Origin: Lactococcus paracarnosus
GTDB taxonomy: Bacteria > Bacillota > Bacilli > Lactobacillales > Streptococcaceae
Direction: 5' to 3'
DNA: 64,000 nucleotides
NCBI RefSeq assembly: GCF_006770285.1
Contig: NZ_CP017195.1
Coordinates: 1,550,001-1,614,000 of the forward strand
In this document: positions 18,832 to 54,205 of the stretch, piece after piece
Layout: every line of letters begins with the position of its first letter
Numbering within the stretch: position 1 is the stretch's first letter
Program-made: the position numbers and the translations under genes
Notes under the pieces: generated by a model
Seen by the model: the letters and a program-made list of their open reading frames with translations, nothing else
The model's database searches: none
Told to the model about the DNA's origin: nothing

Positions 18832-19963
18832 TAGTATGTGTGTAAATTCTTGTCGTGATTGTGGGGTCTGAATGTCCGACACGTTCCATAATTGCAACTT
18901 GATTTGCACCAGATTCAACGAGATAGGTAATATGTGAGTGTCGTAATGAGTGCGGAGTAAATTTTTTATCAAATCCAGCTCGCTCACCAAACATTTTGAA
19001 ACTTCTACCTAAATCTCTCCAAGAGACAGGGTTTCCTGTTCTGCTAGGGAAAATATACCCATAATTAACAAAATGATTTGCATTTAACAATAGCCTATTG
19101 TTATCAAACTCAAAAAAATCAATGATCTCAATTGCTCGTTTTGATAAGTAAACTTTCCTATTCGAAGCTAGCGTTTTTGGCGTTGTATGCCTTTTTACAG
19201 TAACACCGCCACCTGAATAATCTAAAGTACTGTTCACATCAATATATTTTTCTTTCAAAAAATAGTCTTGCCAAGTAAGTGATGCTAATTCACCATAACG
19301 TAAGCCTGTCAAAAATAAAAATTCTAAAATCATAGCATTTCTATGGCAATCAGGTCTAATCATTAAGCTAAATATCTGCTTTAACTCATCATAACTAAAC
19401 AACTTTTTACTCTCTTTATTAATATCTTCTAGCGTAATAGGTGGAACACTTAGTTTAACTTTTTTCATCATGTCAACTTTGATAAAGTCTAATCTAAAAG
19501 CAAAATCCATGATTTGTTTAAAGATACCAAAATAGGTCATTAAAGTTCTACGAGTATAAGGCATTTTATTAAAATATCGCTGAATCATTAAGGGAGAAAA
19601 TTCTCCAATTTGCTTGTCTTTAAAATCCCTCTTTAAGATATTACAATATCTTGTACGTGTCATAAGCGTAGAATGTTTTATCTTGCGAACTTGGTCTTCC
19701 AACCAAATATCAATCACATCAGAAAAAAGTATAAACTCGCTTGGCGTATCAACTATCGTACTTTGCTTTTTAAGTTTATGCTTAATTTTATCAAGCATTA
19801 AACTTTTTGCCTGATTCCCAGCCTGCTTACTTTTTGAAGTAAGTGTAACTGAAATTTTTTCTTCTTTGAACGTTATCGGATTTTCATACCGCATTCTCCA
19901 TACATATTTTCCAATAGTTTTTGACTTTTCAACCCAAATACTACCTATTTTTATATCTCGCAT
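18782..19963 (-). CDS. int: ICE tyrosine integrase
   Basis: 393 residues. The N-terminal arm-binding region (about 1-70) is followed by the SAM-like core-binding domain (about 75-175). The catalytic domain has the conserved residues in order: Arg in TGLRYGELASL, Lys in the KTLASNRKVY region, HSLRHSHITYLVESGA, and the GHSDPTITTRIYTH block with the nucleophilic Tyr. It resembles the integrases of Tn916 and ICESt elements. It sits next to the left end beside tdk, with xis upstream, the standard arrangement for site-specific ICE excision. Confidence 0.93.
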   Translation of the reverse strand: MRDIKIGSIWVEKSKTIGKYVWRMRYENPITFKEEKISVTLTSKSKQAGNQAKSLMLDKIKHKLKKQSTIVDTPSEFILFSDVIDIWLEDQVRKIKHSTLMTRTRYCNILKRDFKDKQIGEFSPLMIQRYFNKMPYTRRTLMTYFGIFKQIMDFAFRLDFIKVDMMKKVKLSVPPITLEDINKESKKLFSYDELKQIFSLMIRPDCHRNAMILEFLFLTGLRYGELASLTWQDYFLKEKYIDVNSTLDYSGGGVTVKRHTTPKTLASNRKVYLSKRAIEIIDFFEFDNNRLLLNANHFVNYGYIFPSRTGNPVSWRDLGRSFKMFGERAGFDKKFTPHSLRHSHITYLVESGANQVAIMERVGHSDPTITTRIYTHTTDKMREKLVGMIDNPD

Positions 19964-20062
19964 AAGTCCTCTCCATAAAATAAAAAGGCAAATATTGAGA
20001 TAGTCATTAACACTAATTATATCACTATATTGCTTTTTTTTCTAAATTATTATTTTATCACA

Positions 20063-20284
20063 TCATTTAAAACGCTTCTTTTTTTCTTCCAGCAAAAATT
20101 TATCAAAAGCTGGTAACCAAACTCTTCCTGATAGTCTGAAACAATTAGCGCTAAGATACTCTTGATTTTTACGCATTACACCAATTTGATTTGCAACTGT
20201 TTTTTCTGATAAGCTATAAAAATCAGCAATATATTTTTTATCTCCAAACTTTTTGGGAATTTCTACATCTATCTCTTTGGCCAT
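20063..20284 (-). CDS. xis: Excisionase-like DNA-binding protein
   Basis: 73 residues, basic, with a predicted winged-helix pattern (IADFYSLSEKTVANQIGVMR) and a C-terminal FRLSGRVWLPAFDKFLLEEK segment as in Xis proteins of Tn916-type elements. It would direct the integrase towards excision. It lies directly upstream of int on the same strand. A partial copy of this gene occurs at about 54110-54196. Confidence 0.75.
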   Translation of the reverse strand: MAKEIDVEIPKKFGDKKYIADFYSLSEKTVANQIGVMRKNQEYLSANCFRLSGRVWLPAFDKFLLEEKKKRFK

Positions 20285-20311: not shown

Positions 20312-20381
20312 TATACCCTGCAGGGATCGAACCTGTACCACTCACAGTGCTGTGAGTGTTCTACCATTAAACTAAAGGTAT
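20312..20381 (-). ncRNA. tRNA-like element upstream of xis
   Basis: Read leftwards, this 70-base stretch folds as a tRNA cloverleaf. There is a 7-bp acceptor stem (ATACCTT / AGGGTAT), a 4-bp D-stem with AATGGTA loop, and a T-arm with the standard TTCGATC loop. The anticodon arm is abnormal: a 9-bp palindrome CACTCACAG-CA-CTGTGAGTG leaves no 7-base loop with U33, so it should not decode. It lies between two leftward ICE genes, 28 bases before xis, so it is probably part of their transcript. It may be a degenerate tRNA-Gly- or Gln-like gene or a regulatory mimic. Confidence 0.5.
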
Positions 20382-50278: not shown

Positions 50279-50405
50279 CCAGGCCAAACCCTATCTATTT
50301 TCATGTCTCACATTAGTTATCTCTGTAAAATAAAAAAATATAGAGATAGCAATTACTACTAATTATATCACTATATTTGTCTTTTTTCTAAATTATTATT
50401 TGATG
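50279..50405 (-). pseudogene. Deleted integrase remnant and int-xis spacer
   Basis: Directly after the int 3' fragment, bases resembling the 5' end of int (around 50283-50312) and the int-xis spacer (ATTATATCACTATATTTGTC) follow. About 1.1 kb of the integrase gene has been lost between them. The same spacer occurs intact at 19968-20060 and again at 53982-54110. Confidence 0.65.
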
Positions 50406-50606: not shown

Positions 50607-50900
50607 TCAAAGATGGTCATTTTGTTTATTCCGCTCTTTTAGTAATTCCTCGTAAATTGGTGGTAAAAGTTCCTCTAAATTACTTATATCTATTTTAACA
50701 GCATCTAAAATCTCTCTTTTTGGCATATTATTATATTCATGATCTATGAAATTACGCAGTAAACGAATACTATTCCAGTCAACATATGGATATTTTTCTT
50801 TTGTCTGCTCGGCTAATTTAGCTAAACTAGCCTGTTCTCCAATCTGAGATAAACTAAATGAAATATCTTCTATAACCATTCCATCAATTAAATCATACAT
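50607..50900 (-). pseudogene. HEPN/HepT-like protein, probably N-terminally truncated
   Basis: 97 residues with the HEPN motif RNFIDHEY (Rx4-6H) and the helical pattern of HepT (DUF86) RNase toxins. The usual first helix of about 30 residues is missing. Codons upstream stay open in this frame for 22 residues (FLLQAGDSTTIGEDNLSGYA), then reach a stop. Open sequence continues in another frame across a run of five G near 50944, suggesting a frameshift. No MNT-type antitoxin gene lies beside it. It may also be a real short gene. Confidence 0.5.
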
Positions 50901-51089: not shown

Positions 51090-51947
51090 TCACAACATTT
51101 GTTGCAATCTTTTAATTTCATCTCTGTAAATTTTTGCTTTCTCTGATAAAAAAAATTGTTCATATGTCTCTGAAACTCGTACTAATATAGAAATCGTCGT
51201 TTGAAAGTTTTCTAGTTTCTCATAAAGATTTGCTTCTAGCAACATATAAGTGATCCCAATTTCTAATGTCCCTATTTTGGGTATTAACGACTTAAATGTT
51301 TCTAAATAATACGTCACTTTTTCATATTGACTGTTATTAATCAAGACATAAATCGAATTTCTTAGCACCATCAAAAGTAAATTAATATCTAAAGATTCCT
51401 GCTCAAGTACACTATCTAGATAAAAAATAATCGATTGATTATCTAGTTGTGTTACTGCAACTGCAAAAAATTGTAGATTTGATATTTTCCAATCCGTAAC
51501 ATTTTGTAGATAGTCTTCCAATATCTCCTGCTCAATAATTGTTAACCTGTCTTTTTGACCATAATTTATTAACACACACTTTAGCGCAATCAGATTCAAA
51601 TGATCTTGCTTTTTAACGCTATTTCTGTTCTTTCTTCTCTCTTTTTCATAAAGTGTATTAAGCTTATCAAGTTCTCCACGTTGCTCTAAATTGCCAACTA
51701 CATCAAATAAAGTTGTCGTTTCATCTTTTTTTAAAAAAATTGAGAATTCAGCTATTGAAATATCAATATTTTGAATTAAGGCAAAAAATCTATCTGTGGT
51801 TATGTCTCCATCTCCTCGTTCAAAGTGTGACAATTGTGATGGAGAGAGGATTTTATCACTAGCTTGAGCTAATGAAAGCCCCTTATCTTGTCTAAGTTCA
51901 CGAAATAATTTCCCAATTTTTTTACTCATTAATTTCCTATCAAACAT
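51090..51947 (-). CDS. Rgg/GadR/MutR-family regulator
   Basis: 285 residues. The N-terminal helix-turn-helix (FRELRQDKGLSLAQASDKIL, SPSQLSHFERGD) is followed by a TPR-like all-helical domain for peptide binding. Rgg proteins control neighbouring peptide or bacteriocin genes in response to short hydrophobic peptides. The likely target is the peptide-exporter unit at 52125-53656. No SHP-type pheromone gene was found beside it. A second Met (MSKKIGKLF) may be the true start. Confidence 0.87.
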   Translation of the reverse strand: MFDRKLMSKKIGKLFRELRQDKGLSLAQASDKILSPSQLSHFERGDGDITTDRFFALIQNIDISIAEFSIFLKKDETTTLFDVVGNLEQRGELDKLNTLYEKERRKNRNSVKKQDHLNLIALKCVLINYGQKDRLTIIEQEILEDYLQNVTDWKISNLQFFAVAVTQLDNQSIIFYLDSVLEQESLDINLLLMVLRNSIYVLINNSQYEKVTYYLETFKSLIPKIGTLEIGITYMLLEANLYEKLENFQTTISILVRVSETYEQFFLSEKAKIYRDEIKRLQQML

Positions 51948-52124
51948 CTAAATAAATAAACGAGTAGATAGATTTCTTTTCATGAATTATCTACTTTGAA
52001 CCAAGTGGCATGAGATCATCCTAAAGTATAAAAAATCTATATATTAGTTAATAATATTATAGAATATGTCCTTGAAAATTTCAAAAAATATGAGCGATAA
52101 TGATTCAATTTACCTTCTAAACAT

Positions 52125-53360
52125 TTACTTATTGACAGATTTTTTATCCTTATTCGACATCACTAAACAAAAAAATACAACTACTGATAGTATAGATACA
52201 ATATAAAATGTCGGATAGATACCAATTAAATTTGCAAGGAATACGAAAACTATGCCACCCAAAGGAATTGAGAACGTAAAAATTGTTGTAATACCACCTC
52301 CTATTTTTCCTAAATATTCTTGTGGCACATTTTCTAAAATCAGTGCACTTAATTTAGGACTTGCCTTTGCTGAAACATAAGCCAAAGCAAATAAACACAC
52401 TAGAGAGAGATAACCATAATGAATAACTAAAACTGAAAAAAGGGAAATCATAAGAAATGAAGTTAACAGTAATTTAGAAAGATCCCAGTTTTTAAGTTTG
52501 TCATCCATAATGAATGAACCTGAGAGCATCCCAACCATCAATATTATATTAAAAATCATAACAGAGGTTCCAAATTTTGTTGGAAAAGGATTAAATTTTA
52601 GAATCGTTAAACTAATTAATGGGCCCACACCAGCCATGATAAAGTTAATAAAAATAAGAGAAAAGAGCAAAATTAAAAAATTTGAAGAATTATCTACATC
52701 AAATATTCCCTTAATTTGAGTAAAACTTTCTTTCATATTAAATTCAAATTTTTTAGTATTTATAAGTGGTTTATAAGTTAAGAATGAGTTAAATAACAAC
52801 AGTGAAATCCCACTGAGAAAATATAAAACACCATTCACCATAAGAACAAAACTGAATGATTGATTCGACATTGCTAATAAAGTGACACCTAAGGGTTGTC
52901 CTATGATTTCAACAATAGATGATAACCCTTGAAGTTGACCAAAAGCAGGTTGAAGGCCCTCCGATTTTAGGTTATATTGCAAAATAGGTGAACGCAATCC
53001 AGATTTATAACTTGTCATTAAATCAGATAATATTTTAACGATTGCAATTAAAATAAAGGACATGATATTTTTTTCATTCATGACTACAAAAAGCATTATG
53101 AATAAAATACCTTGAATCCAACTAAATATAATCATTGATTGAACTTTATGCTTAGTTTTATCTGCTAAAAAACCAGTGTAGGCGGAGAATATAAGAGGAA
53201 GCAATATACATATCTCTGCTAATGAGACCATCATTTTAGCATGTGGTAATGAACTTGCATAGATTAAAAAAACAATATTGAACAAACTAGTACCAAGCAT
53301 TGAAAAAATTGAACTGATCAGTAATGATCCGAATGCCTTGTTTTTTAACATTAATGCCAT
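52125..53360 (-). CDS. MFS transporter, probable peptide or drug exporter
   Basis: 411 residues with 12 predicted membrane helices, MFS type. The loop 2-3 motif (YTGFLADKTKHKVQSM) is typical of the group that includes macrolide and other small-molecule exporters. Its ATG overlaps the stop region of the 50-residue gene before it, so it is translationally coupled to the peptide locus and may export or give immunity to its product. Confidence 0.8.
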   Translation of the reverse strand: MALMLKNKAFGSLLISSIFSMLGTSLFNIVFLIYASSLPHAKMMVSLAEICILLPLIFSAYTGFLADKTKHKVQSMIIFSWIQGILFIMLFVVMNEKNIMSFILIAIVKILSDLMTSYKSGLRSPILQYNLKSEGLQPAFGQLQGLSSIVEIIGQPLGVTLLAMSNQSFSFVLMVNGVLYFLSGISLLLFNSFLTYKPLINTKKFEFNMKESFTQIKGIFDVDNSSNFLILLFSLIFINFIMAGVGPLISLTILKFNPFPTKFGTSVMIFNIILMVGMLSGSFIMDDKLKNWDLSKLLLTSFLMISLFSVLVIHYGYLSLVCLFALAYVSAKASPKLSALILENVPQEYLGKIGGGITTIFTFSIPLGGIVFVFLANLIGIYPTFYIVSILSVVVFFCLVMSNKDKKSVNK

Positions 53361-53503
53361 AAATCCTCTCTCATTCTTTTAATTAATTTATAACCTTCAT
53401 ATCCCTTAAGAAAATCTATTTCGTAAGATGAGGTAGCAGATATATGTACTTTAAAGCCATATTCAGGAAGTTTGTAATTCTTGGTTTTTATATATTCAAA
53501 CAT
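53351..53503 (-). CDS. 50-residue protein resembling LanKC N terminus
   Basis: The ATG at 53501-53503 after AAGGAAG opens 50 codons. The segment YKLPEYGFKVHISAT is very like the (LP)-x-x-G(W/F)K(V/L)H(V/I)SAT motif near the N terminus of class III lanthipeptide synthetases (LanKC). After residue 27 the sequence no longer matches and ends at 50. I infer an internal deletion of a synthetase gene that kept the two ends in frame, or a free-standing short relative. Its stop overlaps the MFS start. Confidence 0.45.
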   Translation of the reverse strand: MFEYIKTKNYKLPEYGFKVHISATSSYEIDFLKGYEGYKLIKRMREDLWH

Positions 53504-53516
53504 TATTCTTCCTTAT

Positions 53517-53544
53517 AAAAAACCTGACTTTTTATATAGCCAGG
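53517..53544 (-). terminator. Attenuator between peptide and downstream genes
   Basis: Stem CCTGACT / AGCCAGG (one G-U pair on the RNA) with an 8-base loop and a U-run on the leftward strand. It sits between the 31-residue peptide and the 50-residue gene, a common arrangement that favours precursor peptide over enzyme. Confidence 0.6.
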
Positions 53545-53560
53545 CTTATCTCTAAAATTT

Positions 53561-53656
53561 CTACCCAATAATCGCGCAATACAACGTAATATTGATGTCA
53601 TCTTCATTTTTGATTTCTTTTGGTAATCTATTAAGTTTGATAATCTTCTCTTTCAT
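53561..53656 (-). CDS. 31-residue candidate RiPP precursor
   Basis: A strong AAGGAGG site precedes the ATG at 53654-53656. The peptide has a charged leader-like part (MKEKIIKLNRLPKEIKNEDD) and a hydrophobic tail INITLYCAIIG. The tail contains one Thr and one Cys spaced for a T-x-x-C ring, as a lanthionine-type bond could form. Followed by an attenuator, then a LanKC-like fragment and an exporter, and near an Rgg gene, it has the context of a ribosomal natural product precursor. The product is not one I know. Confidence 0.5.
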   Translation of the reverse strand: MKEKIIKLNRLPKEIKNEDDINITLYCAIIG

Positions 53657-53685
53657 TATTATTTCCTCCTTAAGTTAATATAGTC

Positions 53686-53722
53686 ATTCTACTATAAAAA
53701 AAGGACTTTTATTCCAAGTTCC
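53686..53722 (-). promoter_or_regulatory. Peptide promoter region with imperfect palindrome
   Basis: -10-like TATAGT (53691-53696) with TTGGAA upstream (53712-53717) at a short 15-base spacing. An inverted repeat GGACTT-(7)-AAGTTCC (53703-53722) overlaps the -35 element and could be an Rgg operator. Activator-dependent promoters often have such poor boxes. Confidence 0.4.
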
Positions 53723-53981
53723 TATATATAATAAAAAATACATTGTAAAATTAGTATGCAGCTTATTTTTTTCAAAGTATGCACTGACCATTTTCTGATA
53801 AAAATATCTTTTTTATCAGAATACAAAAATAGTATAAATTGAAAAGAATATAGTTAAATGCGAACTAAAATACACTAGTGCTATGTTGTGACCTGGGGTC
53901 TAAATATTTGATACGCGACTAATTGCAACTTATTTACGCCAGTTTCAACTCAGTCAGGCCATACAAGCAACTTTTTGCTTA

Positions 53982-54205
53982 TCAACCCAAGTCCTATATA
54001 TTCTCATGTCTCACATTAGTCATCTCTGTAAAATAAAAAATATAGGGATAGCAATTACTGCTAATGATATCACTATATTTGTCTTTTTCTAAATTATTAT
54101 TTGTTTACATCATTTAAAACGCCTCTTTTTCTTACATCAAAAATCTATAAAAAGCTGGTAACCAAACTCTTCCTGATAACTTAAAACAATTTCTCAAAGT
54201 ATTTA
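53982..54205 (-). pseudogene. Second int/xis remnant
   Basis: Matches 19932-20165: int 5' end, int-xis spacer and the last part of xis, where AAAAGCTGGTAACCAAACTC (+ strand) is retained. It also matches 50285-50405. It marks the end of a third, mostly lost element and bounds the peptide locus on the right. Confidence 0.75.

What the first reader, a model, noticed from the sequence alone, without database searches (positions are those of the whole stretch)
51090..53722. Minimal Rgg-linked peptide locus with LanKC-like fragment
In one leftward unit stand a 31-residue peptide with T-x-x-C tail, an attenuator, a 50-residue protein with the GFKVHISAT motif of class III lanthipeptide synthetases, and an MFS exporter, followed by a separate Rgg regulator gene. 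Both small genes have strong ribosome binding sites. It may be a deleted lanthipeptide cluster or a small RiPP system of a new kind. Free-standing LanKC N-terminal pieces are not known to me.
Basis: partly seen in the sequence, partly recalled or inferred. Interest (0 to 1): 0.72.

Follow-up and report, generated by a model that had tools for sequence, protein, structure and literature searches.

The report
Lanthipeptide operon with gutted synthetase gene
A small bacterial peptide operon has lost nearly all of its modifying enzyme through one clean in-frame deletion, while keeping the peptide gene, the exporter and the regulator; intact versions in relatives belong to a family that seems to have gone largely unnoticed.

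Summary
On the minus strand lie a 31-residue TxxC peptide, a hairpin, a 50-residue ORF, an MFS exporter and, further on, an Rgg regulator. The 50-residue ORF is not a free-standing LanKC N-terminus. It is the first ~24 and last ~24 residues of a ~614-residue class III-type lanthionine synthetase, fused in frame: a profile from three intact Lactococcus synthetases hits it at both ends (model 4-26 and 590-614, E 2.8e-11, best of 1703 window ORFs). Lactococcus plasmids (pMRC01 and others) and an L. cremoris chromosome contig carry the intact operon. L. hircilactis carries an independent in-frame deletion, plasmid pS74 a third deletion. [T/S]xxC peptides sit at 25 of 27 family loci read. The remnant lacks most lyase residues and all of the kinase and cyclase, and no other LANC_like or RamC_N match was found in this genome, so the peptide is very probably unmodified here. 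Best reading: a non-producing derivative keeping regulator and exporter, perhaps for protection (inferred, not statistically shown). The locus itself is a known kind of thing, a broken bacteriocin-type cluster; the intact family, with a half-size cyclase region, is the more interesting part.

The parts
53719..53737 (-). 19-bp promoter motif TTTTTATTATATATAGGAA, putative Rgg operator
   Evidence: Upstream of the peptide gene in 6 of 6 Lactococcus-type loci laid side by side, window included. Only match with up to 2 mismatches in the own genome, but the control (pattern read backwards) also had 1. Not found in G041 or G011 (best 4-6 mismatches). Binding by Rgg is inferred.
53561..53656 (-). 31-aa precursor peptide with TLYC (TxxC) near its C-terminus
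   Evidence: 58-61% identical to the pMRC01 and L. cremoris precursors; same place in the operon.
53520..53547 (-). hairpin between precursor and synthetase remnant (attenuator-like)
   Evidence: hairpin at the same place in 6 of 6 Lactococcus-type loci; not listed by the simple terminator scan.
53351..53503 (-). 50-aa remnant ORF of a short LanKC, internal in-frame deletion
   Evidence: Two-ended profile match, E 2.8e-11.
53432..53503 (-). N-terminal part of the remnant, residues 1-24, ending GFKVHISAT (lyase Lys-x-His motif)
   Evidence: Profile positions 4-26; Lys and His match ThurKC K65/H67 by spacing.
53360..53428 (-). C-terminal part of the remnant, SYEIDFLKGYEGYKLIKRMREDL
   Evidence: Profile positions 590-614, the very end of the enzyme; the ATGA of the relatives reads ATGG here, so two residues (WH) follow before a TAA.
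52125..53360 (-). MFS exporter, 411 aa, open
   Evidence: 66-67% identical to the MFS next to LanKC or its remnant in pMRC01, L. cremoris and L. hircilactis; groups with them in a tree; start overlaps the remnant ORF by 10 nt.
51090..51947 (-). Rgg-type regulator, open; here downstream of the MFS gene, upstream of the peptide in Lactococcus
   Evidence: 61-62% identical to the Rgg of pMRC01, L. cremoris and L. hircilactis, same clade.
53987..54103 (-). upstream copy of a ~117-bp direct repeat flanking the locus (role unknown)
   Evidence: 92% identical to 50284-50402.
50284..50402 (-). downstream copy of the same direct repeat
   Evidence: a third copy, 78%, at 19932-20078.

Best explanation
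The locus is a defective, non-producing derivative of an Rgg-linked minimal lanthipeptide operon (Rgg, short TxxC precursor, hairpin, ~614-aa short LanKC, MFS exporter). One internal in-frame deletion of roughly 560 codons removed almost the whole synthetase and fused its first ~24 to its last ~24 codons (shown by sequence). Working of the intact system (inferred from homology): Rgg switches on the promoter; the hairpin keeps the precursor above the enzyme; the kinase domain phosphorylates Thr, the lyase domain makes Dhb, Cys adds to give one four-residue methyllanthionine ring; the MFS protein exports the product and/or protects the cell. In this genome this enzyme cannot modify the peptide. 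What remains usable is regulator and exporter, possibly kept as self-protection or efflux (inferred). The C-terminal stub may survive partly because it overlaps the MFS start and the sequence in front of it, so that an in-frame deletion leaves exporter translation undisturbed (inferred). The confidence given is for deletion and non-production; for retention of the exporter as protection I would say about 0.45.
For: Two-ended match of the ORF to the intact enzyme. All 16 plasmid records hit by the 50-mer are Lactococcus: 15 through its first half, pS74 through residues 24-48. Same order from peptide to MFS in pMRC01, KMGR2-43 and L. cremoris. Independent in-frame deletion in L. hircilactis: 75-aa N47+C28 fusion, 1617 bp fewer than pMRC01, 11 bp shared by the two ends, with peptide, MFS and Rgg kept. 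A third deletion in pS74 took most of the peptide gene and of LanKC but left Rgg and MFS. MFS and Rgg trees both place the window in the Lactococcus-type clade. MFS, Rgg and peptide show third-position-heavy divergence. No LANC_like match and no RamC_N match but the remnant itself in the own genome. Residues invariant in 18 of 18 intact relatives match ThurKC K65, H67, K94, K117, D152, R163 by spacing; the remnant keeps only the first two.
Against: The ORF is still open, with a start and a ribosome binding site, and is no more diverged from pMRC01 (31 of 47 residues identical) than the intact KMGR2-43 enzyme is over the same stretches (32 of 47), so recent loss and maintained function cannot be told apart. 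No relative with an intact gene at this site was found (11 other genus genomes). Retention of the exporter for immunity is not statistically shown: in 27 genome loci read, LanKC is broken, cut down or missing with MFS open in 9, the reverse in 2; with the window 10 to 2, P 0.08-0.09 against the gene-length ratio. In plasmid records it is 3 to 2. The promoter motif was not found in G041 or G011, so Rgg control of MFS there is unsupported. No product or activity of any member is known to me.
Confidence: 0.9

Rival explanations
1. The 50-residue fusion is a functional microprotein, for example binding the leader of the precursor or acting on the exporter or Rgg, and the mini-operon is a working peptide system without modification.
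For: Open frame with start and ribosome binding site; a second, independent in-frame mini-LanKC in L. hircilactis that also keeps the peptide; peptide and promoter motif conserved in the window.
Against: The two fusions have different junctions and lengths (50 and 75 aa); the leader-binding residues named for ThurKC lie in lyase, linker and kinase parts that are missing (PMC10604976, passages); in G041 the remnant has decayed to stops and in G011 none was found, with MFS and Rgg open.
Confidence: 0.05
2. Neutral decay: the operon is dying, and exporter and regulator are open only because the deletion is recent. (Agrees with the best explanation on the deletion, differs on why the rest is still there.)
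For: The L. hircilactis deletion looks young (MFS 99% identical to pMRC01); several interrupted synthetases in the family; the bias for MFS retention is not significant.
Against: G041 and G011 have open MFS and Rgg although LanKC is decayed or not found; the window's promoter motif and hairpin are intact.
Confidence: 0.35
3. The remaining Rgg-MFS pair is an efflux module not concerned with the lanthipeptide, from which the RiPP operon was built or onto which it was grafted.
For: G011 has only Rgg and MFS, though its genome is 70% complete; the MFS protein matches the drug exporter model Mef(A) far below cut-off (28.5 of 675 bits).
Against: Loci outside this clade also have LanKC before MFS, so loss in G011 is simpler; G041 carries LanKC debris next to MFS.
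Confidence: 0.15

Closest known systems
Class III lanthionine synthetases LanKC (ThurKC, RamC; Pfam RamC_N, NCBIfam NF038151)
   Same: Lyase and kinase domains of the intact relatives match (NF038151 253.5 and 237.6 bits for the two tested; LanKC crystal structure 8sao E 2.1e-64 over profile 3-342); six lyase residues of ThurKC matched by spacing, invariant in 18 of 18.
   Different: Whole enzymes 614-658 aa in 18; the part after the kinase is about 180 aa in the 614-aa form, against 372 for the ThurKC cyclase (residues 491-862); LANC_like at E 0.01 in 6 of 18; NF038151 cut-off of 575 bits not reached. The window holds only the two ends.
Class III lanthipeptide precursors with Sx2Sx3C motifs (PMC7268733, passage)
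   Same: Short precursor beside the synthetase; the Lactococcus-type leaders share L[NH]xLP, which may correspond to the LELQL motif named for ThurA1 (my comparison).
   Different: One T or S and a Cys three residues later, no Sx2Sx3C in the Lactococcus-type peptides; none of 9 family peptides matches any NCBIfam model.
Partial bacteriocin clusters that keep immunity or transporter genes ('cheaters') in pneumococcus (PMC6120550, passages)
   Same: Production lost, transporter kept.
   Different: There mostly the bacteriocin gene is lost; here the synthetase is lost and the precursor kept.
Rgg/SHP-controlled radical-SAM RiPPs (streptide and others; PMC11002830 and PMC13361665, passages)
   Same: Rgg regulator beside a RiPP operon.
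   Different: LanKC instead of a radical SAM enzyme, and an MFS exporter in the operon; I did not look for an SHP gene beyond reading the ORF list.

Membership tests
Class III lanthipeptide synthetase (LanKC), the window 50-mer | Lyase, kinase and LanC-like domains on one chain | tested here: not met
   Only residues 4-26 and 590-614 of the model are present.
Class III lanthipeptide synthetase (LanKC), the window 50-mer | Descent from a LanKC gene | tested here: met
   Two-ended profile match E 2.8e-11 and conserved gene order.
LanKC, the intact relatives | RamC_N-type lyase domain with catalytic Lys/His | tested here: met
   18 of 18 at E 0.01; residues invariant.
LanKC, the intact relatives | Protein kinase domain | tested here: met
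   16 of 18 by Pfam Pkinase at E 0.01; D300, H302, N305 and D318 invariant in 18 of 18.
LanKC, the intact relatives | Full LanC-like cyclase domain | tested here: inconclusive
LanKC, the intact relatives | NCBIfam NF038151 curated cut-off (575 bits) | tested here: not met
   253.5 and 237.6 bits for the two tested.
Lanthipeptide | (Methyl)lanthionine in the product | not testable with these tools
   Needs mass spectrometry.
Rgg family regulator | HTH plus Rgg C-terminal domain | tested here: met
   HTH_3 and Rgg_C above Pfam cut-offs; TIGR01716 below its cut-off (26.4 of 36.9).

The most novel reading that the evidence does not exclude
Streptococcaceae carry an uncharacterised family of minimal lanthipeptides, each with a single four-residue TxxC ring (the size of nisin ring B, recalled) made by a LanKC with a half-size cyclase region, mostly next to an Rgg regulator and an MFS exporter; and non-producers that lose the synthetase while keeping regulator and exporter arise again and again (in frame in the window and L. 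hircilactis, by other routes in pS74, G041 and perhaps G011), pointing to selection for immunity without production.
Probability: 0.4. Interest if true: 0.62.

Novelty: new variant of a known kind. Interest (0 to 1): 0.42.

Why it matters
It settles an odd fragment as a deletion scar and shows how to recognise such scars: a match to both ends of a missing enzyme. It also brings up an operon family that standard mining can miss: the two full-length enzymes tested fall under the NCBIfam LanKC cut-off, LANC_like finds 6 of 18, and a published survey discarded ORFs under 30 residues (PMC7268733, passage), while many precursors here have 27-29. On pMRC01, the plasmid of lacticin 3147 (recalled), the enzyme is listed as a hypothetical protein. 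A one-ring lanthipeptide with a half-size cyclase region would be a small model for asking what the cyclase domain needs.

Tried and rejected
Free-standing LanKC N-terminal domain: rejected, the C-terminal half matches the other end of the enzyme. A second LanKC acting in trans: no LANC_like match and only the remnant for RamC_N in the own genome; its other LanKC match (E 1.2e-4) covers only query residues 180-328, the kinase part, in a 651-aa frame. Orthologues in the same genus: the MFS matches in G001, G005, G006 and G009 are 30-31% identical and form a separate group in the tree; only G011 (38%) joins the clade. The peptide and the 50-mer were not found in the 11 other genus genomes. Flanking direct repeats as an RNA: no Rfam match in the window except a tRNA, folding not clearly better than shuffles (z -0.46 and -1.23). 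Empty site in relatives: the upstream ABC genes gave only short matches in the genus, so no empty site was sought further. Viral contigs: one distant relative only. Species of the window: not determined; a plasmid search gave no hint. Codon-position comparison of the remnant did not date the deletion. Bias towards exporter retention: not significant. Rgg motif in G041 and G011: not found. No chance control was run for the [T/S]xxC peptides; they were picked by a Cys filter and by eye.
Full report
WHAT IS THERE. The window is bases 1,550,001-1,614,000 of a 2.27-Mb single-contig genome. On the minus strand run a 31-codon peptide gene (53561-53656), a hairpin (53520-53547), a 50-codon ORF (53351-53503), an MFS gene (52125-53360, starting inside the end of the 50-codon ORF) and, 177 bp further on, an Rgg gene (51090-51947). 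The peptide has AAGGAGG and the 50-mer AAGGAAG before the ATG.

WHAT THE 50-MER IS. Public libraries give only sub-threshold hints of LanKC (RamC_N E 0.0078, NF038151 E 0.0043). tblastn against plasmids hit 16 records, all Lactococcus; in 15 the best place covers the first half of the 50-mer, in one (pS74) residues 24-48. In pMRC01 and like plasmids the match is to a 614-aa protein between Rgg and MFS, with an unannotated 29-32-codon peptide before it. I built profiles without the window sequence: from 18 intact relatives the ORF scores E 3.3e-8 (N-terminal part only); from the three Lactococcus ones E 2.8e-11, with two adjoining matches, model 4-26 and 590-614, the latter ending at the last residue of the enzyme. 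It is the best of 1703 stop-to-stop ORFs in the window; the runner-up has E 0.69 and 1.2. So the ORF is N-terminus plus C-terminus, with some 560 codons missing and the frame kept. The stop overlapping the MFS start in relatives (ATGA) reads ATGG here, adding W-H before TAA.

IT IS NOT A WORKING SYNTHETASE. In ThurKC the lyase uses K65, H67, K94, K117, D152, R163 and R191 (PMC10604976, section 9 read). K20, H22, K49, K72, D106 and R118, invariant in the 18 intact relatives, have the same spacing within one residue (my mapping). The window 50-mer keeps only the first two and has no kinase or cyclase. The own genome has no LANC_like match and no RamC_N match besides the remnant, so no substitute enzyme is in sight.

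OTHER DELETIONS. L. hircilactis DSM 28960 has a 75-aa version, 47 N-terminal plus 28 C-terminal residues, with peptide, MFS and Rgg kept. Set against pMRC01 it lacks 1617 bp, with 11 bp shared between the two ends. Plasmid pS74 lost most of the peptide gene and of LanKC, keeping Rgg and MFS. In G041, another genus of the family, LanKC is in debris with stops beside an open MFS and Rgg, in the same order as the window. In G011, same genus as the window and 70% complete, Rgg and MFS stand side by side with no LanKC or TxxC peptide found there. In both trees G011, G041 and the window fall with the Lactococcus-type genes (MFS clade 98/98, Rgg clade 98/96); the program warned of long branches for G011, G041 and some others, and the root is the midpoint.

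HOW COMMON. Of 335 family genomes, 44 have a LanKC-like match at E 1e-10 or better; the 11 other genomes of the window's genus have none beyond kinase-part matches, and neither the 50-mer nor the peptide. I read 27 loci: 26 of the 44, plus G011 from the MFS search. A 27th of the 44, G024, is most likely the L. cremoris contig read as L015. The other 17 were not read; 16 of them have longer frames, 737-874 aa, and one, G298, 180 aa. A short peptide with T or S, two residues, then Cys was found at 25 of 27 loci (T in 22, S in G214, G065 and G187); the two without are G041 and G011. Rgg lies near the operon in 24 of 27 (split in G095; none seen in G304, G313, G302). LanKC and MFS are both in one open frame in 16 of 27 (in one of these, G126, a stop is counted in the match and the frame starts late; in G251 and G276 the MFS is only 24-26% identical to the window's); LanKC broken, cut down or missing with MFS open in 9 (G283, G088, G023, G028, G079, G158, G062, G041, G011); MFS broken or not in place with LanKC open in 2 (G214, G247). 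Some breaks may be sequencing errors. In the 16 plasmid records LanKC is matched in one piece in 13, in two pieces in 2 and deleted in 1; MFS is in pieces or incomplete in 2 others. The excess of LanKC loss (10 to 2 with the window) against the length ratio of the genes gives P 0.08-0.09, not significant; a search by LanKC also misses complete losses.

THE INTACT FAMILY. The 18 enzymes aligned have 614-658 aa; at E 0.01 RamC_N is found in 18 of 18, Pkinase in 16 and LANC_like in 6. The profile matches LanKC crystal structures over its first half (8sao E 2.1e-64, positions 3-342; SalKC 9ugq, 17-378). The part behind the kinase is about 180 residues in the 614-aa form, against 372 in ThurKC. That g6 is Lactococcus rests on G028 having the contig length (18169) and remnant of the L. 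hircilactis scaffold and G024 having the same 87% full-length match as L. cremoris NBRC 100676. That g10 is Streptococcus is my guess.

REGULATION. A 19-bp motif, TTTTTATTATATATAGGAA, lies upstream of the peptide in 6 of 6 Lactococcus-type loci compared, window included, and in none of the eight other-type ones printed (by eye). It occurs once in the own genome within two mismatches, but so does the control pattern read backwards; in the window one match with up to 3 mismatches against 0.16 expected, 15 of 100 shuffles having at least one. So its weight comes from conservation of place, not rarity. It was not found in G041 or G011. A hairpin lies between peptide and synthetase in 6 of 6, with different sequences. 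The promoter region and hairpin of the gutted operon thus look intact.

AGE AND SELECTION. MFS differs from L. cremoris by 0.29, 0.11 and 0.58 per codon at positions 1-3; Rgg and the peptide show a like pattern. The remnant is 31 of 47 identical to pMRC01; the intact pMRC01 and KMGR2-43 enzymes are 32 of 47 over the same residues. The deletion is therefore recent or the stub is constrained; the overlap with the MFS start would be enough reason.

LITERATURE. Nearest passages seen: a 2026 review of Rgg/SHP and RaS-RiPPs has no hit for 'class III', 'Lactococcus' or 'MFS', but mentions a pneumococcal Rgg939 transcript that includes a lanthionine biosynthesis protein (PMC13361665); a Streptococcus thermophilus study mentions a truncated lantibiotic cluster with a dehydratase, a lanthionine synthetase and an MFS transporter (PMC10826417), and whether that is this family I did not test. 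Subscription journals are mostly not held, so the family may be described elsewhere. Partial clusters that keep immunity or transporter genes are reported in pneumococcus (PMC6120550, passages).

VERDICT. The finding is real and mostly explained: a deletion-gutted lanthipeptide operon with regulator, precursor and exporter left. The more interesting object is the intact family behind it.

Noticed in passing
window 50284-50402, 53987-54103, 19932-20078: A ~117-bp direct repeat (92%) flanks the RiPP locus plus a 97-aa ORF; a third copy (78%) lies about 230 bp from a tRNA at 20312-20381. No Rfam match; folding not clearly better than shuffles.
   Followed up: partly
window 50607-50900 (-): 97-aa ORF matching the second half of the HepT-like ribonuclease family (Pfam PF01934, profile 63-117 of 120, E 4.9e-7); looks like a fragment.
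   Followed up: partly
L070 3165-3211 and 7372-7418 (G023): An identical 47-nt hairpin-like sequence flanks that genome's RiPP locus 4.2 kb apart, as if the locus had been inserted or copied with it.
   Followed up: no
L005 (plasmid of L. lactis KMGR2-43): The precursor gene is tandemly duplicated with an identical peptide.
   Followed up: no
L004 (NZ_CP094477.1): The plasmid holds two LanKC places; the first is frameshifted before its C-terminus, the second is matched in two pieces.
   Followed up: no
L012, L013, L014: Three goat-gut MAG contigs labelled Clostridia carry the Lactococcus LanKC (100% in the best segment; L014 only residues 107-614), probably binning contamination.
   Followed up: no
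H31/H97, NZ_PP589880.1: The MFS gene next to an intact LanKC is matched over only 67% of its length, with an IS30 family transposase annotated in the matched stretch.
   Followed up: no
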